Below are positions 8,007 through 33,652 of a stretch of 64,000 bases of DNA, piece after piece (the first letter of the stretch is position 1; each line of letters begins with the position of its first letter). The position numbers and the translations under genes are program-made. The notes under the pieces are model-generated. The model made no database searches, was not told the origin of the DNA, and worked only from the letters and a program-made list of their open reading frames with translations. Source of the DNA: a virus; IMG/VR virus record IMGVR_UViG_3300024999_000029, positions 285,051-349,050 of that record; one strand, written 5' to 3'.

Positions 8007-9586
8007 ATGGCAAATGACCTTTCTATAATATTAAAGTCAAAATTAGACCAATCAGCAAAGGCTGTTGGAGATTTAAACAAGCAAATAAAAGAAATTGAAT
8101 CTAAATTAAAAGAAATAAAATTAAAAGTTAATTTTGATAGTAAAAATATAAATTCTAATGTAAAAAGTAAAATGAAAGATGTTGAAACTACTGTTAAAAA
8201 TACATCAAAAAAAATAAAAATATTTGACGAAAATCAACTCAATAAAGATTTTATCGGTGTAAAAGATATCGTTAATAGAATCCAAAAAACCTTTAGTAAA
8301 TTAGGAGATACAAAAATTGCTATAGGTAAAAACGCAAAAGGTGAAATACAATCAGTAACAGCAGAAGTTACAAAAGCTAATGGTGTAATTGAAAAATTTA
8401 AATATAATTTAGGTGAAATACAAAAGGGTGGAAGGAAATATGCTGGTTTTGTATCTGGTGGTTCTAAAGTTACTGATAATACTGCTCAAATTGCAGAAAG
8501 ACAATTACAAGCAGCTCAAAAGACAAATTCAGCAATTGAAAAACAGAATCAATCAAGAATACGCGCAGAAAATAAAATAAATGAAATACAAGAGAGAAAT
8601 CTTAGGAATAGAGAAGCAAGAGAGGCACAAGCAACACAGAGAGAGTCACAAAGAAGACAAAGACTTGAATCTTCAACTAACGAAAGATGGCAGAGAAATT
8701 TAATACAAAGAGAAGCAAGAGAAGCACAAGTAGCTAGAAGAACGGCTCAAGTTGCAACTAATACTTCAAATCAACTAGGACTTTTTCAACAGCAGCAAAA
8801 TCTTAGAGCAACGTCACTCACTGGTGGTGCGGCTGGGAGATTTGTTGATAATACTGCATTAGAGCAATTTAGAAGAAGTGTTGCATCTCTAACACGAGAT
8901 ACGCCTAATCTTAGAAATAGAATGGCAGAATTGAGATTGGAATTTCAAAGAATTAATTCTTCCGCACAAAACGCTAGTAGAAGTTCTTTAAATCTTGGAG
9001 AATCTATTAGACAGGCCGCAATAAAATTCCCCCTCTGGATGGGCATAGCGACTGTCTTTATGCAAATAACAAATCAAGTAAGAGATTCTATTAAGTATAT
9101 ATATGATATGGATACCGCTCTTACTGAATTATCTAAGGTTACTGATTTTAGTGCAGAAAGATTGGATAATATGCGTCAATCTGCATTGGAACTTGGAAAG
9201 CAACTTGGTCATAGTTCTGTTGATGTCATGAAATCTATGGCTGAATTTGGTAGAGTAACTAAAGATCCAGAGGCAATAAAACAACTTGCTAAAACAGCAA
9301 CAATGGCTTCAAATGTTACTTCTATGACAGCTCAAGAAGCAGCCAAAGCTTTAAATTCTACAATGATTTCTTTTAAAATGAACGCAACTGATAGTATGAA
9401 GATATTAGATCAGTGGAATGAGATCCAAAATAATTTTCGTGTAAGTGCTGAAGATTTGGCAGATTCAATTGGGAAAGTAGGAGCAGCAGCAGGGCAAGCA
9501 GGAGTTAAAATTGAAGAATTAGAAGGATATACGGCAGCAATTGTATCAGCAACAGGCATTACAGGTTCGGAAAGTGGAACAGCCCT
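8007..9586 (+). CDS. tape measure protein, exon 1
   Basis: The first 526 codons plus two bases of the tail tape-measure gene, starting at ATG behind AAAGGAGG. Coiled-coil and Gln/Arg-rich repeats (about residues 170-260) lead into the conserved TP901-type tape-measure region, with a hydrophobic segment near 345. The exon stops within GTALK, a spot where homologues continue with (T/S)IxSRxxRIG. The reading frame continues after the intron at 10803. Spliced length is 1,673 residues, which would correspond to a long siphophage tail. Translation without splicing ends a few codons later at TAA. Confidence 0.9.
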
Positions 9587-10802
9587 TAAATTTAGGGGCT
9601 TGGCAGCATAATACATAAACTGCTAAGAAAAATCTATTCTAATATACGGCGAAACTCCAGAGATGGACAACGCCTTCCAATTTTTAATGTTATTTATAAA
9701 ATAAAATAAAATCATCACAAATATAAACTAAAATATAAAAAGGGTGATATAATGGCTTTTCATAAAATCAAAAAGCAAGATAGTTTTGCGCAATGGTTTT
9801 TAGATAATTTTGGTATTGATAAATTCAATACATTAATAAAACATGAGAAAAACTTAGAAGTAGGATTAGATATATGGATGATATTTAAAAGAAGCACAGC
9901 TAAAATATGGTTCTATTGCGAAAATAAAAATTATCATGAATTTTGTATGTCAGCATATAATTATTATAAAGGTCAAAGATGTAAATATTGTGCAAGAACA
10001 AAATATATTCATCCTAAGGATTCTTTAGGACAGTATATTATTGATAATTTTGGAGAAGATTTTTTAAATATAATATGGTCAAGTAAAAATATAAAATCTC
10101 CTTTTAAATATTCAATAGGAACTGAAAAAAAAGTATGGTTTTCATGTATTAATGAAATACATGAAGATAAATTAAGACAAGTAAAAAATGCGGTAAGAGG
10201 CGATTTTTATTGTCCTTATTGTATGGAAAATAATAATTCTTCAAAATTACAAGAAAAGGTAAATCAATATATAAATTCATTAGGATATAAAATAAATACA
10301 GAATGTAATTGCACTATTATCCCTAAAAATCCAAAAACAAAATTTAATTTACCTTTTGATAATGAAATAGAAGAATTAAAATTAATAATTGAAGTCAATG
10401 GACGCCAACACTATGATGAAATTAGCAGTAATAGTAAGTGGCTCAATGGGAAAACAGCTAAAGAATATTTACATAATAGAAAACTTAAAGACAGATATAA
10501 AAAAATCTTTGCGAAATCGCAAGGATATTTTTATTTGGAGATTCCTTATTGGTGTGATGACTATAAAGAATCTTGGAAAGATTTAATAAACAATAAAATA
10601 AATAATATTAAAAAGGGAACAACGACTGAGACGAATAGACTACATTTCTGATGTAGATGCAACAGTCTGAACGTCACGCTATAATCTAAAAAATGAAACG
10701 TGAGAGAAATGGTCGCTGGTAATCAGACCAGCTAAAGAAGAACCGTTTCCGCTATCGAACAGATAGTCAGTAACCTTAAATCAAGGTGAAAGTAACAGAT
10801 TG
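9587..10802 (+). mobile_element. group I intron in tape-measure gene with homing-nuclease ORF
   Basis: The intron interrupts codon 527. The exon end GCCCU pairs with GGGGC (9593-9598) to form P1 with a U-G pair at the 5' splice site. AUUUA just before that guide pairs with the start of exon 2 (UAAAU) as P10. The intron ends in G (10802). P7 is formed by GACTG (10624-10628) and CAGTC (10663-10667, within AACAGTCTGAACG, the usual group I S element), with a P8 hairpin CTACAT/ATGTAG between. Removing it restores a continuous tape-measure frame. Confidence 0.93.
9752..10651 (+). CDS. intron-encoded homing endonuclease, EDxHD/Vsr-like
   Basis: A 299-residue protein starting at ATG behind AGGGTGATATA. 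Two related N-terminal segments (residues 9-95 and 90-165), each with DNF and Cys-x-x-Cys pairs (CKYC, CPYC), look like zinc-ribbon DNA-binding repeats. The C-terminal part has LIIEVNGRQHYDE (about 210-222), as in Vsr-related EDxHD nucleases such as I-Bth0305I. Its last codons overlap the intron core (P7 5' strand and P8), showing ORF and ribozyme are merged. It presumably cuts intronless tape-measure alleles. Confidence 0.75.
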   Translation: MAFHKIKKQDSFAQWFLDNFGIDKFNTLIKHEKNLEVGLDIWMIFKRSTAKIWFYCENKNYHEFCMSAYNYYKGQRCKYCARTKYIHPKDSLGQYIIDNFGEDFLNIIWSSKNIKSPFKYSIGTEKKVWFSCINEIHEDKLRQVKNAVRGDFYCPYCMENNNSSKLQEKVNQYINSLGYKINTECNCTIIPKNPKTKFNLPFDNEIEELKLIIEVNGRQHYDEISSNSKWLNGKTAKEYLHNRKLKDRYKKIFAKSQGYFYLEIPYWCDDYKESWKDLINNKINNIKKGTTTETNRLHF

Positions 10803-13800
10803 TAAATCCATAATTTCCAGAACATTTCGTATAGGCGAAGAAGGTGCTGAAGATGCAGGTAAAACAGAAGAGTATCTTAATTCTATAGGTATTGCTGTCA
10901 GAAAATCAGCTACAGAATTTAGGGATTTTTCTGGCATATTAGATGATATTAAAGGTAGATGGGGTTCTTTAACATCTACGGAAAAAAGTGCTTTAGCTCA
11001 ACAAATGGCTGGAACCTGGCATTATTCAAAATTTATTGCATTAATGGAAAATTATGGAATAGCACAAGATGCAACCAATAAAGCAATGAATAGTCAAAAT
11101 TCAGCATTACAAGAAAATGCAAAATATATGAATAGTGTTGCTGGTAAAGTTGGACTATTTAAAGTTTCGTTAGAAAATTTATATTCCACAATTTTATCAT
11201 CTGATGCTTTAAAAAATATATTAGATGGTTTAATTAAATTTATAGAAGTCACAAATAGAGTTGTGACAGGATTGGGCGGATTTAATACAGCTTTATTATT
11301 AATAATTAATACTTTAATAATATTTAAAAGTAAGGCAATTGCTAGTGCTATAACAAGTGTATGGGCATACATTGCCGCTTTCGGTTTAGCCGAAACAGCA
11401 ACACTTGGGTTTAGTGCGGCAGTTAGTGTATTAAATACTGCTTTATTAGCATTGCTTAAAAATCCTATAACATGGATACTTGCGGCAGTGGGAACATTGA
11501 CTATTGGTATTTTTTCATGGATTAATGCTAATCAAAAATTAAAAGAATCAATAATTGAAACAAATAAAGCTCAACTAGATTTTAACTTGGCTGTTAAAGA
11601 TTTTTATCAAGATATGTCACCTGATAAAGTAAATGCAACTGCACAAGCTTTTGAAAATTTAAAAAAGCAACTTAATTATAAAAATGATAATGATTTACAA
11701 GAAGATATTAATAAAATTCAAGAGTTAAGAAAAGAATCTGAATGGGCTAAAAAAGTTTTATCTGATTCTGGCCGTAGTTCATATGAAAAGAATTTAGCTC
11801 AAAAAATATTACAACAACTATCTGATTTAGAAGATAAAACTAAAAAATACACTGAAGCTCAAAAAGAATTAGATACACAAAAGGCAATTACCAACATACT
11901 AGATACAGAATCCCAGAATAATATTGCCAAAAAGGTTAAAGGGAAATTATCTGAATTAGATGCAGACAAAGAATTGATAAAACAGTATGAAAAAAGCGTT
12001 AAAGCTGGAAAAGAAGATAAAGAGATTCGTGACCAAATTTTAGATAAATATCCTCAATATCTTAAAATGATTGGTGAGCATTCAGATAAAATTGGCATTA
12101 ACACAGATACATTAAAAATTAATATAGATATTCAAGAAACTCTTGCAAAAGCTGAAATAGTAGAAGCACAAGTAGCAATGCGGGCAAGCTTAGATAAGAC
12201 AACTACAATTGTAGAACAAACTAAGCAAAGAATAACGGCGTTAAAAGAAGAGCAATCCGCACTAGTAGCTATAAGTAAACCTATTTCTGTAGCTGATGTA
12301 GAAATTTCACCAGCTACAGAAATATTTAATGATCGAATAGAAGAAAAGTTTTCTCAAATAGTTGAGGCTGAAAAGGGTTTGGAACGACTTCAGTCAGCTA
12401 TTGAAATTCAAAAAGGCTCTTTAGAATTAACTCCAGAACAAATTTTAGCTGCTGCAAAATCAGGTAAAAAAGGATATTTTTCAGATTCAGATGGAGATAA
12501 ATCTTCCTTGCCAACTCTTAAAGAAGCAGTTGCTCGTGAAGAGTTAACTAAAGAACTTGTTAAGGCTTATAATAAAGAAGTTGATATATCAGATGTTAAG
12601 ATTAAACATCTTGAGAGACAACTTAAAATAAATGACGAACAAAAAAATTATAATAGAGAGCTTGAATTAACTAATTCACTTATATCAAACCAAGAGGCTA
12701 AAATTGGTCAACTTGGGACAGCTAATAAAAGTATAACAAAAGAGGCAGATAAACTACGTGCCGATAATCTTAAATTTGACACAACCAAGTGGTTTGATGT
12801 GGGTGGAGAAGCAACAGTAGATTATAGGAAACTTCTTAATTCATTTGCTATTGAATCAGAAAAAATACGTGCCAAAGCAGAAAAAACTAATACTAAAACA
12901 GCTATTCAAGAATCAAATAAACAGATTCAGGCTTTAGAAAATCAAAAGAAAAAAATTGAGGAATTATTTAACAATATTTATGCTCTTAAAAAGGCTTATG
13001 CTTCTAATACGGACGAAATATTAAAGACTGAAGATGCAGTTGATTCATTAAAACAAAGTGTTGTTAAATTAAATGAAGAACAAAAGAAACTCCAAGAAGA
13101 ACTTTACAAAAAGCAAAAAAAATCTCTTGAAGAAATTTTAGATTTAGTCACTGAGATGATTAAGCAAGAAGCGGAAGATCAAATTGACGCACTTGAAGAA
13201 CAAGTTGATAAATATAAAGAAATAATTAGTGCAAAAAAAGAAGCATTGAAGCTTACTGAAGAACAACACGATTATGAGAAGTCTTTAGCTGAAAAACAAA
13301 AAGATATATCTAAGATTCAAAATCGTCTTTTAGAATTAAGTCTTGATGATAGTCGTGCAGCACAGGCTGAAAGACTTAAATTAGAAGAAGACTTAGCAGA
13401 TAAAACATCGGATTTAGATGAGTTGCAACATGATAGAAGTATTGAACTTCAAGAGCAAGCTTTAGATAAAGAATTAAAACAGTTTGAAGATACTAAAGAC
13501 AAAGAGATTAAAGAAATTAAAGATTATCTTGATAAATCTGGACGTTTAACTGCCGATGCTATGAAATTAATTAATACTCAAGGTGATACGGTTTATAACA
13601 ATTTAGTAAAATGGAATGAATTGTACGGAGATTCGATTGAAAATAATGTAAAAAATTCCTGGGAGAGTGCTAAACAAGCCTTAAATAGTTATAAAAACTC
13701 TTTGAATCAAATTGATTATAATTTTGCATCACAAACTCTTAGCGATACTTTAAATGAGAGCGATATTATTGCTCAAATGCAAGCAAATTCTAAGTCTTGG

Positions 13801-14244
13801 TCTAATGCTAGTCCTGAATATAAAAAAGAGCTTGCGGCAGAGAATCTTAGACTTGGAACAAGTATAGGATTAACCAGAGATGATAAGACTGGCATTTGGT
13901 ATGATAAAAGTGGAGTTAGAGCTTATGCTGGTGGTGGCACAAGTACTGAAACTCAACTTGCATTATTACATGGCACAAAAGCTAATCCAGAATGGATTCT
14001 TAATTCAGGTCAAATGAAAAGTTTGATTACTAATTTGACTTTACCTCAATTCAAGATGCCTGAAGTTAAGGGATTATCTAATGGCAGTGGGGTTCAAATT
14101 GGTAGTTTGATTACAGTAAATGGAAATGTAGATAAAGCAGCTATGCCAAAACTTGAAACTGTTGTAAATCAAGCAGTTGATAAGTTGGTTAATACGATGG
14201 GACTTAGGGGCAATACTAGGTCGACAAAATCATATAGCATTTAG
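10803..14244 (+). CDS. tape measure protein, exon 2
   Basis: The continuation of the tape measure gene, beginning with the last base of the split Leu codon and reading LKSIISRTFRIGEEG, the expected continuation of the tape-measure signature. Hydrophobic segments (about the 380 to 470-residue zone of the full protein after splicing, and the next 80 residues) are followed by very long coiled coils to the C-terminus. A final beta-like region ends with IGSLITVNGNVDK. The exon encodes 1,146 residues. The protein fixes tail length and is likely ejected into the host envelope. Confidence 0.92.
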
Positions 14245-24990: not shown

Positions 24991-25057
24991 TAAATTAAGG
25001 ACAGAATAAAATAACTTGTAATAGGAAACCCCTTGCCTGATAGTAGGGATCTGAACA

Positions 25058-25178
25058 AACACGCTTCACAATGTGCGGCAAAGAAACATTGTTAATACAA
25101 AAGTGCTTCACAATGTGCATTAAATTACATTGTTGATACAAACACGCTTCACAATGTGCGGCAAAGAAACATTGTAAG
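25058..25178 (+). ncRNA. CptI-like repeat RNA antitoxin
   Basis: Three tandem units with a 41-42-nt period (GCTTCACAATGTGC begins at 25063, 25105 and 25146). Each unit contains the stem ACAATG/CATTGT. The middle unit differs in the loop (ATTAAATTA instead of CGGCAAAGAAA) but keeps the stem. The array follows a consensus promoter and is closed by a terminator before the toxin gene, as in type III toxin-antitoxin loci, where the toxin cuts the transcript into single antitoxin units. Confidence 0.8.
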
Positions 25179-27580: not shown

Positions 27581-29605
27581 ATGCCAAGTCAAACTACTAA
27601 TTATAACCTTAATTTGTACGATAAAACCGCAGATAGCGGTTCTAATTTTATAGATTTCAGAGATGATGTTGCTGGGTCTGGTTCAAATAGCAATATGGTT
27701 AAAATTGATAATCAAATGAAAGTAAATACGGACGCAATATCCAATTTAGCAGGAACTGGGAGAACTACAGAAACGGTCAAGGCGAACGCAGATTCTATAT
27801 CCACTTTAAAAACTCAGACCCCGTATGCTATAGCTGCCACGGCATCTTCCGCAAACATATATACAGCAACAAATTCAAGTATAACATCTTATACAACTAA
27901 CTTATTGCTTATTACAACGTTCAACCAAGCAAATACTGGTTCAGCAACTTTAAACATAAGTTCATTGGGGGCAAAAACTTTAACTAAAATTGATGCGTTG
28001 GGTAATGCAAATAGTTTATCTGCTGGAGATATAAAATTAAATAAGCCAATGATGTTTAGATATAATGGTTCAGTTTTAGTATTGGTAGGAGCAAATTCAC
28101 AAGACCAAATTAATACTTCCATAATATCTAAAAGTTCCGATACAACTTTATTAGTTTCTGAAAGTGGAATAATTGAAGTAACTACAGGTTCTACGAACAA
28201 AACAATAACATTGCCTACTGCTATTGGTAATAGTGGTTTAAGATTTGCTATCAAAAAAGCAGACATTGATATTGGAACTGTAATAATTGATGGAAATGCT
28301 TCAGAAACAATTGACGGTGCAACAACGTGGACATTATATGCTCAAAATGATTCTGCAAGCATTATTTCCAATGGAACAAATTGGGATATCATTGCTGATA
28401 ACAGTTTGCATAAAATCGGTATTTTATCGAGTTTAAACACGAGTGACAAGAGCACTTTGGTGGCTTCAATTAATGAAGTTAATACTAACAATATAGCAAA
28501 TACCCTATTATCGGTGCAAGGAGACTTACTTTATGCTTCTGCCGCTAATACTCCAGCAAGATTAGCCAAAGGTTCAGCAGGGCAAGCGTTGATTATGAAC
28601 GCTGGTGCTACTGCTCCAATGTGGGCAGATCCACTAACCAACCTATACCAGCAAGCCATAATCAACGGTAACTTCGATGTGTGGCAGAGGGGGACTAGTT
28701 TTGTAGCAAGTACAAGTTATACTGCGGATAGATGGCAAGGTTTTAGGGGGGCACTTGCTACGGGTATGACGGTATCCAGACAATTAGCTGGATTGAATGG
28801 TTCTCAATATTGCAGTAGGGTGCAAAGAGATAGCGGAAATACTAGTACAAATACGCTAAATTTTGGGCAAGCAATAGAAACTAATAATTCTATACTTTTA
28901 AGAGGTCAAAAAATAACATTATCATTTTATGCTAGGGCTGGTGCTAATTTTTCAGCCGCATCAAATTATTTAGTTGCAGGAATTGGACAAAGAACAGTCG
29001 TTGACGAAAATATAACTGCATATAGCGGAACTACAGATTCTATTAATGTTGTATTAACGACATCATGGCAAAAATTCACGCTTACAACAAGTGCAATAGT
29101 AGATGTTAGCATAAATACAATTAAAGCTATTTTTGCACATGTTCCAACAGGAACTGCAGGAGCGGCGGACTATTTTGAACTAGCACAAGTACAACTATGT
29201 GCTGGTGATGTAGCATTACCGTTTCAGCCTAAGAGTTTTGAAGATGAGTTGAGAGCGTGTCAGAGGCATTATTATCGTATGTCTGCAAGTGATGCGTCTG
29301 GAAATTCGTATCCACGTTTAGCGAGTGGTATGTGTAACACGGCAACACAAGCACAAATAATAATACCTTTCCCTGTAAAAATGAGAAGTATACCTACATT
29401 CCAAACTGGCGGTTCATTTGGAGTATTAAATAATGTTGCTAGTGTAGCGGCTGTTACTTCTATGACACAAGACTCATTATCAAGAAACGTTAATAATAAT
29501 ATGTTGCTTGTAAATGTTGCGAGTGGATTGACCATTGGATACACCACAAATTTATTCACCAATAATGATGCGAATGCTTACATAGCATTTGATGCAGAAT
29601 TATAA
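27581..29605 (+). CDS. receptor-binding tail fibre protein
   Basis: A 674-residue protein behind AGGAGG. The N-terminus TTNYNLNLYDKTADSGSNFI is the standard attachment segment of Firmicute phage fibres. The middle contains Ala/Thr/Ser-rich repeats. A C-terminal carbohydrate-binding-like module starts near residue 357 with IINGNFDVWQRGTSF and YTADRWQGFRG, continuing to a jelly-roll (ITLSFYARAGANFS, WQKFTLTTSA). The final 140 residues (YYRMSASDAS...) look like a separate tip domain. Likely determines host adsorption. Confidence 0.8.
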   Translation: MPSQTTNYNLNLYDKTADSGSNFIDFRDDVAGSGSNSNMVKIDNQMKVNTDAISNLAGTGRTTETVKANADSISTLKTQTPYAIAATASSANIYTATNSSITSYTTNLLLITTFNQANTGSATLNISSLGAKTLTKIDALGNANSLSAGDIKLNKPMMFRYNGSVLVLVGANSQDQINTSIISKSSDTTLLVSESGIIEVTTGSTNKTITLPTAIGNSGLRFAIKKADIDIGTVIIDGNASETIDGATTWTLYAQNDSASIISNGTNWDIIADNSLHKIGILSSLNTSDKSTLVASINEVNTNNIANTLLSVQGDLLYASAANTPARLAKGSAGQALIMNAGATAPMWADPLTNLYQQAIINGNFDVWQRGTSFVASTSYTADRWQGFRGALATGMTVSRQLAGLNGSQYCSRVQRDSGNTSTNTLNFGQAIETNNSILLRGQKITLSFYARAGANFSAASNYLVAGIGQRTVVDENITAYSGTTDSINVVLTTSWQKFTLTTSAIVDVSINTIKAIFAHVPTGTAGAADYFELAQVQLCAGDVALPFQPKSFEDELRACQRHYYRMSASDASGNSYPRLASGMCNTATQAQIIIPFPVKMRSIPTFQTGGSFGVLNNVASVAAVTSMTQDSLSRNVNNNMLLVNVASGLTIGYTTNLFTNNDANAYIAFDAEL

Positions 29606-31252: not shown

Positions 31253-31474
31253 ATGACTCAAACAAAACGTAAAAAAGAAGGTCGGAAACAAGCAAGGAGT
31301 TTAAAAAAAATTATTATTCTGGAACGTGGTCGCAGATGTGAAATTTGTGGTTCAACAAGGGATGTATCAATATGAGGATTAAATCTAAAAAATATTAAAC
31401 TTTGATTGTGTAAAAAATGTATCAAAATTTTTAACTCAATTCGTACCATTGGAACAGGCATTGTCTGTTGTTAA
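31253..31474 (+). pseudogene. degraded HNH homing endonuclease
   Basis: ATG 31253 behind AAAGGAG starts MTQTKRKKEGRKQARSLKKI, then LERGRRCEICGSTRDVSI, a typical HNH N-terminus, but TGA follows at 31373. After a second stop the same frame resumes LCKKCIK, the distal Cys pair. The central His-His segment is missing or mutated. A short, otherwise unassigned frame to 31565 (LTQFVPLEQALSVVNS ...) overlaps it. Probably a dead remnant beside the IStron. Confidence 0.6.
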
Positions 31475-31599
31475 TTCTCCACTAAAATCAATTGAACTTG
31501 AGGAAACCATTATTTTAATTGAAAAAACGAATAAAGAATGGTTAGTTGGGGTAACTAACAGTTAATAAAATCTTATAAGAAGTTATAAATTATGAGGTT

Positions 31600-31985
31600 A
31601 TTATATAACTACGCCCCCTTTGTCGAGTAATTGGCATAGCAAACAACACATATATGCAGGTAATGCCTAAAGCCTTACACCACAATATGACTGAAAAGAT
31701 TATATGATGGGACGAAAGTAGAAAAAACGTAAGGATGGATATAAGGTTAAACCCTAATTATCTATAAACAATGGCTGTTCATGCAGGGAATTTTCTAAGT
31801 CTGAAAAGATATGGATTGCTCTCAACGACTATTCCGATAGGAAGTAAAACCACAAGCGATTGGTGGAAGAAAAGTGTTGCCCCTTAGAAATAAGGGTGGT
31901 GAAATAGTCTACGCTCATATGAAAGTATGAGGTTATTAGCGTGAGCGAAATGGCATTTATGAAGTAGCGTTCATAGGTAAATAGT
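31600..31985 (+). ncRNA. group I ribozyme core of the IStron
   Basis: No protein gene lies in this stretch. The segment CAACGACTATTCCGATAGGA (31823-31842) is a textbook R element with the P7.1 insertion of group IA introns. GACTATT (31827-31833) pairs with AATAGTC (31913-31919, in GGTGAAATAGTCTACGCTC) to form P7. A P9-like hairpin (CGCTCA ... TGAGCG) follows at about 31922-31949. Upstream parts (31610-31800) presumably form P1-P6. Splice sites could not be placed with confidence. Confidence 0.75.
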
Positions 31986-32053
31986 ATGAAAGTTATAAGA
32001 AAGCATATAAATCTTTAATAAAATTTATAAAACAAATTAACATCTGACAAATG

Positions 32054-32200
32054 TTAGTTATTAGAAACATAATTCTTTAAAATAGTAATAATTAAGTTAT
32101 TAAATGAACGATTTTCATGTTCGGCTAATTGTTCTAATTGTTCTTTTAATTCTTTAGGGATTGTAATTAAAGTTCTAGTATTGTCTTTAGAAATACTCAT
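32054..32200 (-). CDS. ribbon-helix-helix DNA-binding protein
   Basis: A 48-residue protein on the - strand behind GAGGTGATATTT: MSISKDNTRTLITIPKELKE, then QLEQLAEHENRSFNNLIITI. The beta strand TRTLITIP followed by two helices with RSFNNLI is the classic Arc/MetJ/CopG fold. It is divergent from tnpB, and the two promoters overlap, so it probably represses both. Confidence 0.85.
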   Translation of the reverse strand: MSISKDNTRTLITIPKELKEQLEQLAEHENRSFNNLIITILKNYVSNN

Positions 32201-32218
32201 AAATATCACCTCAATATA

Positions 32219-32269
32219 ATTATAACATGATATAATGGTATTGACAAGGTGATATCACTATGATATACT
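32219..32269. promoter_or_regulatory. overlapping divergent promoters with palindromic operator
   Basis: For tnpB: TTGACA (32241-32246), 17 bases, TATACT (32264-32269). For the RHH gene on the - strand: TTGTCA (32247-32242), 17 bases, TATAAT (32224-32219). The two -35 hexamers overlap by five bases. The perfect palindrome GTGATATCAC (32249-32258) lies in the tnpB spacer and is a strong operator candidate. Confidence 0.8.
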
Positions 32270-32288
32270 GTAAATAAGAGGTGAGAGT

Positions 32289-33431
32289 ATGATAAAAGGA
32301 TTTAAAACAAAAATATATCCAAATCAAGAACAAAAAGAAAAAATAATTAAATTTTGTAATGCCAGTAGATTTTCATATAATTGGAGTTTAAATGTTGAAA
32401 GCGACAATTATGAACAAGGAAATAAATTTCTTAGTGGATATGATTTAGCTAAAATATTTACACAATTTAGGAATCAAGAAGGAAATGAATGGTTGAAAGA
32501 AATTCCTGCTTGCACTACTAAGATAGCAATATTTAATTGTGCAGAATCATTTAAAAATTTCTTTGAAAAACGTGCAAAATATCCTAAATTTAAATCTAAA
32601 AAACATAGCAAAATGAAATGTGCTACTAGATATGACAGGATGACTATTGAAGAAAAAAGAATAAAGTTAGAAAAATTAGGATGGATAAGAACAGTAAAAG
32701 GTAGGATACCTGTAGGAAATGATATAAAATATTCTAATCCTGCACTAGAGTACGATGGAATAGATTTCTGGTTTTCTGTAGGGGTTGAAATTATTGATAA
32801 TCAAGATAATGACAAACCTAAAACTGAAGCAATAGGAATTGACTTAGGTATAAAGCAATTAGGTACTTGCTCAAATGAAATGAAGTTAGATAAACCAGAT
32901 ATTAAGAAACAAAAAAAGAAACTTAAAAGACTTCAAAAGCAAGCAAGTAGACATTACCAAAAAATGATTGAGGAAAGCAAACGAACGAAAATCAAGTTTT
33001 CTCAGATTCCTAAATCAAAGAACCTACTTAAACTTGAAAAAGAAATTAAAAAACTACATATAAGAATTAATAATACGCTCACTACAAATATACATGAATT
33101 CACAACAAAACTTATTAAGTTAAATCCAGAAGCAATAGTAATTGAGGATTTAAATGTAATTGGAATGATGAAAAACAAGCATTTATCAGAAAAAGTTAAA
33201 GAAGCAAAATTCTATGAGATACGTAGACAATTAGAATATAAAAGCAAATGGAACAATGTTAATTTAATACTGGCTGATAGGTGGTATGCAAGTAGTAAAA
33301 TATGTAGTGAGTGTGGAAACAAAAAAGATAAATTAAGTTTGAGTGAAAGAATATATATTTGTGAAGAATGTAGCTGTATTATAGATAGAGATATGAATGC
33401 TGCATTAAATTTAAAGAAATTAGCTATATAA
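32289..33431 (+). CDS. tnpB: TnpB RNA-guided nuclease
   Basis: A 380-residue protein behind AGAGGTGA. The N-terminus KGFKTKIYPNQEQKEKI is typical TnpB. RuvC acidic residues are intact: Asp in IGIDLGIKQL, Glu in AIVIEDLNVIG, Asp in IDRDMNAALNLK. The zinc ribbon has CSEC and CEEC. Length and motifs indicate an active omega-RNA-guided DNA nuclease that maintains the element. It is read from its own promoter facing the RHH gene. Confidence 0.93.
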   Translation: MIKGFKTKIYPNQEQKEKIIKFCNASRFSYNWSLNVESDNYEQGNKFLSGYDLAKIFTQFRNQEGNEWLKEIPACTTKIAIFNCAESFKNFFEKRAKYPKFKSKKHSKMKCATRYDRMTIEEKRIKLEKLGWIRTVKGRIPVGNDIKYSNPALEYDGIDFWFSVGVEIIDNQDNDKPKTEAIGIDLGIKQLGTCSNEMKLDKPDIKKQKKKLKRLQKQASRHYQKMIEESKRTKIKFSQIPKSKNLLKLEKEIKKLHIRINNTLTTNIHEFTTKLIKLNPEAIVIEDLNVIGMMKNKHLSEKVKEAKFYEIRRQLEYKSKWNNVNLILADRWYASSKICSECGNKKDKLSLSERIYICEECSCIIDRDMNAALNLKKLAI

Positions 33432-33600
33432 GCAACCTAACTGCTTAATATGGTATGTACCCTAACCGTTTAGGGGAGTTTAAGTCCTTGGAATCGCACG
33501 TCAAACTGGAGTAGCTTCGGCAAAACAGGCGATAATGAATTGGAAAGTATGAAAGTTAGGGAAATTATAGGTTTTATTAAAGATTTACAACTTTTTATAA
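33432..33600 (+). ncRNA. putative omega-RNA / 3' end of IStron
   Basis: A gene-free stretch directly after tnpB with several short stems, including CCCTAACCGTTTAGGGG and GGAGTAGCTTCGGC. TnpB guide RNAs come from this location, with the guide taken from sequence beyond the element end. Exact boundary unknown. Confidence 0.5.
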
Positions 33601-33621
33601 CTTTTATATAACGGTATTTCT

Positions 33622-33652
33622 TAAATAGGGCTTATTTGCCCATTTTTTTTAA
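33622..33652 (+). terminator. intrinsic terminator
   Basis: AAATAGGGC pairs with GCCCATTT, followed by a long T run. Another hairpin (GGAGGTGT with ACATCTCC) lies at about 33685-33712 before the holin gene. Confidence 0.75.

What the first reader, a model, noticed from the sequence alone, without database searches (positions are those of the whole stretch)
32054..33431. IStron whose tnpB faces an RHH repressor gene over one shared promoter region
The -35 boxes of tnpB and the RHH gene overlap, and a perfect GTGATATCAC palindrome sits in the tnpB spacer. This suggests tight protein control of TnpB and of guide-RNA production, a control layer not usually described for IStrons. TnpA is absent.
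Basis: partly seen in the sequence, partly recalled or inferred. Interest (0 to 1): 0.62.

Follow-up and report, generated by a model that had tools for sequence, protein, structure and literature searches.

The report
Phage RNA-guided nuclease with built-in repressor
A mobile element in a giant phage carries an RNA-guided DNA-cutting enzyme (TnpB) facing a tiny repressor gene across one shared switch, and the same repressor and switch recur beside unrelated selfish DNA-cutting enzymes, which suggests a portable safety catch for selfish nucleases.

Summary
Window 31552-33613 is a 2,062-bp group B (IS607-type) IStron: a group I intron, a divergent 48-aa RHH gene, tnpB and a RAGATH-18 guide-RNA scaffold. 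Two related viral contigs show the empty site, so the RHH gene arrived inside the element. The overlapping -35 boxes and the GTGATATCAC palindrome are as described, and they are conserved. In 56 non-redundant RHH relatives, 46 keep the back-to-back promoter layout (shuffles 0.4 on average); 26 keep a near-perfect palindrome at the same place (shuffles 1.3). A second half-site lies exactly 11 bp away in 32 of 49. Strand-variant RHH proteins (VR[AS]NL[IV]I) go with a TACGTA operator, 7 of 7 against 0 of 40 with the usual strand. The partner is usually a selfish nuclease: TnpB 21, HNH 13, GIY-YIG 2 of 57. So this is neither IStron-specific nor tied to one tnpB lineage: the nearest tnpB (64%) is an IStron without it. 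Best reading: an autoregulated RHH repressor cassette swapped among mobile nucleases. Binding, repression and any effect on guide RNA are inferred, not shown. The closest published precedent is the Arc_2/CvkR repressors of type V-K CASTs.

The parts
31552..33613 (+). Whole group B (IS607-type) IStron, 2,062 bp; target TTGGGG, 3' end AACGG (GG at the junction is shared, so the ends may equally be set 2 bp to the left)
   Evidence: Empty site TTAGTTGGGG/TATTTTCTAAATAGGGC in L245 and L244; 5' end GGTAACTAAC and 3' AACGG shared with other IS607-type elements
31640..31935 (+). Group I intron core, homologous to the intron of the known IStron SrISt1 and of Staphylococcus phage introns
   Evidence: blastn to L004, L005, L008; alignment A4 and consensus fold with 27 of 53 pairs showing compensatory change
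31827..31831 (+). P7 5' strand GACTA
   Evidence: Invariant in 8 sequences, pairs with TAGTC
31905..31909 (+). P7 3' strand TAGTC
   Evidence: Invariant in 8 sequences
31983..31995 (+). 5' copy of the IStron direct repeat AGTATGAAAGTTA
   Evidence: D13; group B IStrons are described with such a repeat (PMC4227781)
31985..32032 (+). 5' arm of the long AT-rich inverted repeat (partner 33565-33608)
   Evidence: I1, I13, I24
32054..32200 (-). RHH (CopG/Arc-like) repressor gene, 48 aa, ATG start
   Evidence: Pfam RHH_5 above its cut-off; AlphaFold model with pLDDT 89 matching CopG, Arc and AmrZ bound to DNA
32219..32247 (-). RHH promoter: -35 TTGTCA 32247-32242, -10 TATAAT 32224-32219
   Evidence: layout conserved
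32241..32269 (+). tnpB promoter: -35 TTGACA 32241-32246, -10 TATACT 32264-32269
   Evidence: layout conserved
32249..32258 (.). Operator palindrome GTGATATCAC in the tnpB promoter spacer, 2 nt from the -35 box
   Evidence: conserved and covarying across RHH loci
32261..32265 (+). Second operator half-site TGATA, 11 bp from the one in the palindrome, overlapping the tnpB -10
   Evidence: spacing of exactly 11 bp in 32 of 49 loci, 0-4 at other spacings
32289..33431 (+). tnpB, 380 aa, putative RNA-guided endonuclease with catalytic triad D185, E286, D368 and four zinc-finger cysteines
   Evidence: these residues are invariant in alignment A5; the catalytic assignment is from family knowledge
33485..33546 (+). 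RAGATH-18 RNA, the guide-RNA (reRNA) scaffold of IS607 TnpBs
   Evidence: Rfam RF03064, 50.5 bits against a cut-off of 44.9; function from PMC11061315
33546..33558 (+). 3' copy of the IStron direct repeat
   Evidence: D13
33565..33608 (+). 3' arm of the AT-rich inverted repeat
33614..33633 (+). Presumed natural guide (first 20 nt outside the 3' end); matches the empty allele of L245 with 2 differences
   Evidence: Boundary from the empty site; guide position inferred from TnpB biology
31389..31551 (+). 5' exon of the interrupted phage gene; joined to 33614-33627 it reads ...KTNKEWLVGVFLK, like ...EWLVGVFSK in relatives

Best explanation
A group B IStron in a giant phage carries, in the place where IS607 elements carry tnpA, a small RHH repressor gene transcribed away from tnpB. 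RHH dimers bind the TGATATCA palindrome between the -35 and -10 boxes of the tnpB promoter and the half-site 11 bp away that overlaps its -10. A pair of dimers on one face of the DNA would then shut off tnpB and, through the shared -35 region, also limit the RHH gene itself. The result would be a self-adjusting off state in cells or phages that already hold the element. On entering a cell without repressor, tnpB would be transcribed first and could cut empty target alleles (homing) before repressor builds up. Shown here: anatomy, empty site, conservation of layout and operator, operator/protein covariation, re-use with other nucleases. Inferred: binding, direction of the effect, autoregulation, zygotic-induction timing, and control of the guide RNA made from the same transcript.
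For: Layout score at least 19/24 in 46 of 56 RHH loci (shuffles 0.4 on average, at most 2; distant chromosomal RHH 2 of 19). Near-perfect 10-bp palindrome at one fixed offset in 26 of 56 (shuffles 1.3, distant RHH 0 of 19). Dyad positions covary (pair 1-10 P=0.0015; 3-8 and 5-6 below 1/2000). A second half-site lies at exactly 11 bp in 32 of 49 (0-4 at other spacings), as expected of paired RHH dimers. RHH with strand VR[AS]NL[IV]I has operator TACGTA (7 of 7); RHH with the usual strand has it in 0 of 40. The divergent neighbour is TnpB 21, HNH 13, GIY-YIG 2 of 57; an annotated phage pair is 'Arc-like repressor'/'HNH endonuclease'. The RHH gene lies inside the insertion, as the empty site shows. 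Model closest to CopG, Arc and AmrZ on DNA. TnpA is absent in 0-of-18 fashion from RHH-type tnpB loci, present in 15 of 62 others (P=0.014).
Against: No binding or expression data. 16 of 57 RHH loci have no recognised nuclease partner (some cut by contig ends, two with DNA methylases). The closest tnpB relative (L150) does without the RHH gene. Permutation tests do not correct for shared ancestry. Which strand is repressed more cannot be told from sequence.
Confidence: 0.8

Rival explanations
1. The RHH protein works mainly at the protein level, as an antitoxin-like inhibitor that binds TnpB, and the operator only gives autoregulation, as in type II toxin-antitoxin pairs.
For: RHH proteins are common antitoxins; the nearest solved sequence is the antitoxin EndoAI (E=0.0045).
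Against: The protein is only 48 aa, just the DNA-binding core, without a C-terminal tail for partner binding. The same family pairs with TnpB, HNH and GIY-YIG nucleases that share no surface.
Confidence: 0.06
2. The RHH protein regulates mainly its own gene, or activates rather than represses tnpB.
For: The two promoters overlap, so one site can serve both; a further TGATA at 32228-32232 lies near the RHH -10 (sequence).
Against: The best conserved palindrome sits in the spacer of the nuclease promoter, not in that of the RHH promoter; a protein lying between -35 and -10 normally blocks RNA polymerase (general knowledge).
Confidence: 0.08
3. The RHH protein replaces TnpA as an end-binding accessory factor for transposition or homing.
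For: It occupies the tnpA position, and RHH-type loci lack tnpA (0 of 18 against 15 of 62). A Sporolactobacillus genome holds at least 7 copies of an RHH-TnpB element.
Against: The conserved sites are in the promoter, not at the ends, and the same sites occur beside HNH and GIY-YIG genes that have no IS ends.
Confidence: 0.04
4. Chance neighbour or passenger phage gene with no link to tnpB.
For: The closest tnpB relative lacks it.
Against: Empty-site comparison puts the RHH gene inside the element, and the pairing and promoter layout recur in dozens of independent loci.
Confidence: 0.02

Closest known systems
Arc_1/Arc_2 (RHH_5) and CvkR repressors of type V-K CASTs (PMC9938897)
   Same: Small DNA-binding protein, in part RHH_5, encoded upstream of and in reverse orientation to an RNA-guided effector gene of TnpB descent (cas12k); for CvkR overlapping divergent promoters and repression were shown there.
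   Different: There: cyanobacterial Tn7-like transposons and cas12k only. Here: phage and Bacillota elements, TnpB itself, an intron-bearing IStron, and unrelated HNH and GIY-YIG nucleases sharing one RHH family and operator. In that paper the repression tested was by the MerR-type CvkR, and no CvkR autoregulation was seen.
Group B (IS607) IStrons: BcISt1, SrISt1, CbISt, CsISt1 (PMC4227781)
   Same: GG target, CGG end, AT-rich inverted repeat, direct repeat, intron homologous to SrISt1, tnpB.
   Different: No ORF A. A reverse-strand RHH gene is not mentioned in the survey, which places the ORFs on the forward strand.
IS607 TnpB guided by RAGATH-18-derived reRNA (PMC11061315)
   Same: TnpB with RAGATH-18 downstream.
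   Different: No repressor is mentioned in that paper (text search).
CopG and Arc repressors
   Same: RHH fold, about 45-50 aa, pseudo-symmetric operator overlapping a promoter.
   Different: They regulate plasmid copy number or phage lysogeny genes, not mobile nucleases.

Membership tests
Group B IStron | Insertion after a GG-ending site without target duplication; 3' end CGG | tested here: met
   Empty sites in L244 and L245; element end AACGG
Group B IStron | Group I intron component related to known IStrons | tested here: met
   78% and 71% identity stretches with SrISt1 (L008), invariant P7 pairing, compensatory changes. Rfam's group I model did not fire, but it does not fire on SrISt1 either
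Group B IStron | Long AU-rich inverted repeat and direct repeat around the IS part | tested here: met
   (I1, I13, D13)
Group B IStron | GAAYRN motif just before the IS component | tested here: inconclusive
   None of the five published variants is seen at 31935-31995 by reading the sequence
Group B IStron | IS607 ORF A | tested here: not met
   Absent; not strictly defining, as CsISt1 has ORF B only (PMC4227781)
Group B IStron | Self-splicing | not testable with these tools
   Joined exons would restore ...EWLVGVFLK, as in relatives
IS607 TnpB / reRNA system | RAGATH-18 RNA downstream of tnpB | tested here: met
IS607 TnpB / reRNA system | Intact RuvC triad and zinc finger | tested here: met
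   Invariant D185, E286, D368, C339, C342, C358, C361
RHH transcription factors (CopG/Arc type) | RHH fold above the family cut-off | tested here: met
   RHH_5 35.6 bits; structure model
RHH transcription factors (CopG/Arc type) | Binds its own operator | not testable with these tools
   Indirect: operator conservation and protein/operator covariation
Type II toxin-antitoxin | Antitoxin with a toxin-binding tail | tested here: not met
   48 aa, no tail
CAST V-K Arc_2 regulators | Reverse-oriented RHH_5 gene directly upstream of an RNA-guided effector gene | tested here: met
CAST V-K Arc_2 regulators | Link to cas12k, tns genes, CRISPR array | tested here: not met
   Element holds only intron, RHH, tnpB and RAGATH-18

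The most novel reading that the evidence does not exclude
An RHH repressor plus its divergent operator/promoter is a portable cassette that selfish nucleases of unrelated kinds (RNA-guided TnpB with or without an intron, HNH, GIY-YIG) have acquired repeatedly, with protein and operator evolving together. It gives zygotic induction: silent where the element is resident, active on entry into a naive genome, and it could set immunity groups among phages.
Probability: 0.6. Interest if true: 0.75.

Novelty: new variant of a known kind. Interest (0 to 1): 0.64.

Why it matters
How TnpB elements and free-standing homing endonucleases avoid harming their carriers is little understood. A compact repressor cassette shared by RNA-guided and classical homing nucleases would be a general answer. 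It gives a ready test (48-aa protein, 50-bp operator, two operator types with a predicted specificity residue), and a natural off switch for TnpB and its guide RNA.

Tried and rejected
A genome scan with the single TnpB found nothing and a viral scan found one distant TnpB. A phage search with the RHH alone found nothing at E 0.01; at E 10 it gave S-CoN_Ph26 and Perkons. A DNA pattern for the operator region in viral contigs gave no match. Rfam's group I intron model does not detect this intron, nor the known SrISt1, so its silence was not counted. Terminator for the RHH gene: a weak hairpin at 32036-32056, no better than shuffles, so not claimed. Toxin-antitoxin reading rejected because the protein has no tail. 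Paper searches: no report of RHH regulators of TnpB or homing endonucleases; the library lacks most subscription journals, including the 2024 work on IStron splicing versus guide RNA that I know of only from memory.

Full report
WHAT IS THERE. The window is bases 285051-349050 of a 349,050-bp IMG/VR virus record, a giant phage. tnpB lies at 32289-33431 (+) and a divergent RHH gene at 32054-32200 (-). The two predicted promoters each match 11 of 12 consensus bases, have 17-nt spacers and overlapping -35 boxes. GTGATATCAC at 32249-32258 is the only exact copy in the window, expected 0.04 by chance. RAGATH-18, the guide-RNA scaffold of IS607 TnpBs (PMC11061315), follows tnpB at 33485-33546.

ELEMENT BORDERS. 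Two viral contigs carry the interrupted gene whole. The window flanks joined at 31551/33614 align with them without a gap at the junction, so the element is 31552-33613 (2,062 bp), inserted after GGGG and ending AACGG. Those two records hold no RHH of this family, and the window's record holds one: the RHH gene is cargo of the element. Joined exons read ...EWLVGVFLK, against ...EWLVGVFSK in the relatives. The first 20 bases after the 3' end, the presumed natural guide, differ from the empty allele of L245 at 2 positions, so the TnpB could in principle aim at such alleles (inference).

INTRON. The part upstream of the RHH gene is similar to the intron of SrISt1, a known IStron (plasmid pSRC1, L008), and to introns of Staphylococcus phages. 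Eight aligned sequences share an invariant P7 pairing (GACTA/TAGTC), and 27 of 53 predicted pairs show changes on both sides. With the direct repeat and the AT-rich inverted repeat this fits group B IStrons as described in PMC4227781.

RHH FAMILY. The closest annotated relative, in a Staphylococcus hominis plasmid record with phage genes, faces an HNH endonuclease over the same layout: palindrome TTGATATCAA at the same place in the spacer. Scans of viral and bacterial contigs gave 57 non-redundant core loci (sorted by hand). Divergent neighbour: TnpB 21, HNH 13 (two below the Pfam cut-off), GIY-YIG 2, zinc-finger proteins without a nuclease hit 5, other, none or contig end 16. The annotated phage S-CoN_Ph26 has 'Arc-like repressor' facing 'HNH endonuclease'. 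Distantly related chromosomal RHH genes in Bacilli MAGs have no such neighbour and serve as outgroup. A matched background rate for random gene pairs was not measured.

OPERATOR. Of 56 core upstream regions, 46 reach 19/24 for the joint divergent-promoter layout; dinucleotide shuffles reach it 0.4 times on average (60 sets, at most 2), the outgroup in 2 of 19. A 10-mer with at least 4 of 5 dyad pairs at one fixed offset occurs in 26 of 56, 1.3 in shuffles (at most 4), 0 of 19 in the outgroup. Dyad positions covary: pair 1-10 P=0.0015, pairs 3-8 and 5-6 below 1 in 2000 by permutation, not corrected for ancestry. A second half-site recurs at exactly 11 bp in 32 of 49, 0-4 at other spacings from 5 to 17; part of it overlaps the -10 box, which constrains two of its five bases. 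RHH proteins with strand VR[AS]NL[IV]I have a TACGTA operator in 7 of 7; those with T at that position in 0 of 40 (Fisher P=8e-7 for I against T, ancestry not corrected). This is the strongest indirect sign that the protein reads the palindrome.

MODULE EXCHANGE. On the RHH tree (51 columns, poorly resolved) nuclease types change 12 times where 3 is the minimum. On the TnpB tree RHH_5 presence changes 6 times, at least 5 forced by well-supported branches. The window TnpB groups with L150 (64% identity, also an IStron), which has no RHH gene. Of 80 related viral tnpB loci, 8 have this RHH family and 10 have another RHH in the same divergent place, nine of them RHH_3 type by sequence (Pfam checked on four). 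None of these 18 has a tnpA directly upstream, against 15 of 62 others (P=0.014). RHH-bearing IStrons: window, L040, L050, L100, L107 and L232; RHH-bearing IS607 elements without a recognised intron: L021, L080, L043, L115. A Sporolactobacillus genome holds at least 7 copies of an RHH-TnpB element sharing one left end, so such units move. The family is rare in bacteria: 10 of 400 genomes of that class.

PROTEIN. The 48-aa protein is modelled with two helices after an extended strand (pLDDT 89); best structural matches are AmrZ, CopG and Arc, several bound to DNA, each with E above 0.01 as expected for so short a chain.

MECHANISM. RHH dimers bind the palindrome and the neighbouring half-site, lie between and over the -35 and -10 boxes of the tnpB promoter and block it; the shared -35 region makes the RHH gene self-limiting. 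Resident elements are thus quiet, and a newly arrived element is briefly active. Binding, sign, autoregulation, timing and the effect on guide RNA are inferred.

COMPARISON. CAST V-K systems have reverse-oriented RHH (Arc_1, Arc_2) or MerR (CvkR) regulators upstream of cas12k; repression was shown there for CvkR (PMC9938897). The present case is a new variant of that kind: TnpB and IStron instead of CAST, and the same RHH family shared with unrelated homing endonucleases. No paper in the searched library describes it, which is weak evidence of novelty.

Noticed in passing
L156, L163, L165, L179, L180, L186, L192, L198, L201 (upstream of tnpB, reverse strand): A second, different RHH family (RHH_3 by Pfam in the four checked) sits divergent to tnpB, again with palindromes in the intergenic region (GTCAATTGAC, AACTACATGTAGTT): independent recruitment of an RHH gene.
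   Followed up: partly
L134-L141, L046, L048, L049, L051, L052, L058 (Sporolactobacillus sp. THM19-2): At least 7 copies of an RHH-TnpB element share a left end with a GAGTGTTCTC-type stem and have different flanks; no TnpA seen beside them.
   Followed up: partly
window 31253-31375: Short ORF MTQTKRKKEGRKQARSLKK...CEICGSTRDVSI is a truncated form of an 87-aa CxxC/HNH-like protein found whole in L245 at the same position.
   Followed up: partly
window 25057-25175: Strong match to Rfam Fusobacteriales-1 RNA (93 bits), a repeated hairpin array in the tail-gene region of the phage.
   Followed up: no
L002 (record bases 27719-28801): Second, distant TnpB (33% identity) in the same phage, without an RHH gene of this family.
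   Followed up: partly
L006 1543-1800 (Staphylococcus phage PALS_1): An 86-aa 'MerR' protein directly upstream of tnpB looks like an IS607 TnpA cut down to its DNA-binding domain; perhaps another regulator of tnpB.
   Followed up: no
L011, L084: RHH gene with the family layout facing a DNA methylase gene instead of a nuclease; in L084 the first residues match the TnpB start of L081, suggesting a deletion fusion.
   Followed up: no
L112, L114, L118, L122, L103, L113, L127: RHH subgroup with strand VR[AS]NL[IV]I and a TTACGTAA operator; partners include HNH proteins, a DUF2786/DUF7168 protein and a gp49-like protein.
   Followed up: partly
L150 2455-2470: TTGATATCAC lies upstream of tnpB in the RHH-less IStron closest to the window: possible leftover operator or chance.
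   Followed up: no
window 32228-32232: A further TGATA lies 22 bp (two turns) from the palindrome half-site, near the RHH -10 box: possible autoregulatory site.
   Followed up: no
window 8007-14244: Tape measure protein homology is split over two ORFs (8007-9611 and 10786-14244) with a third ORF between them, so this gene may itself be interrupted.
   Followed up: no
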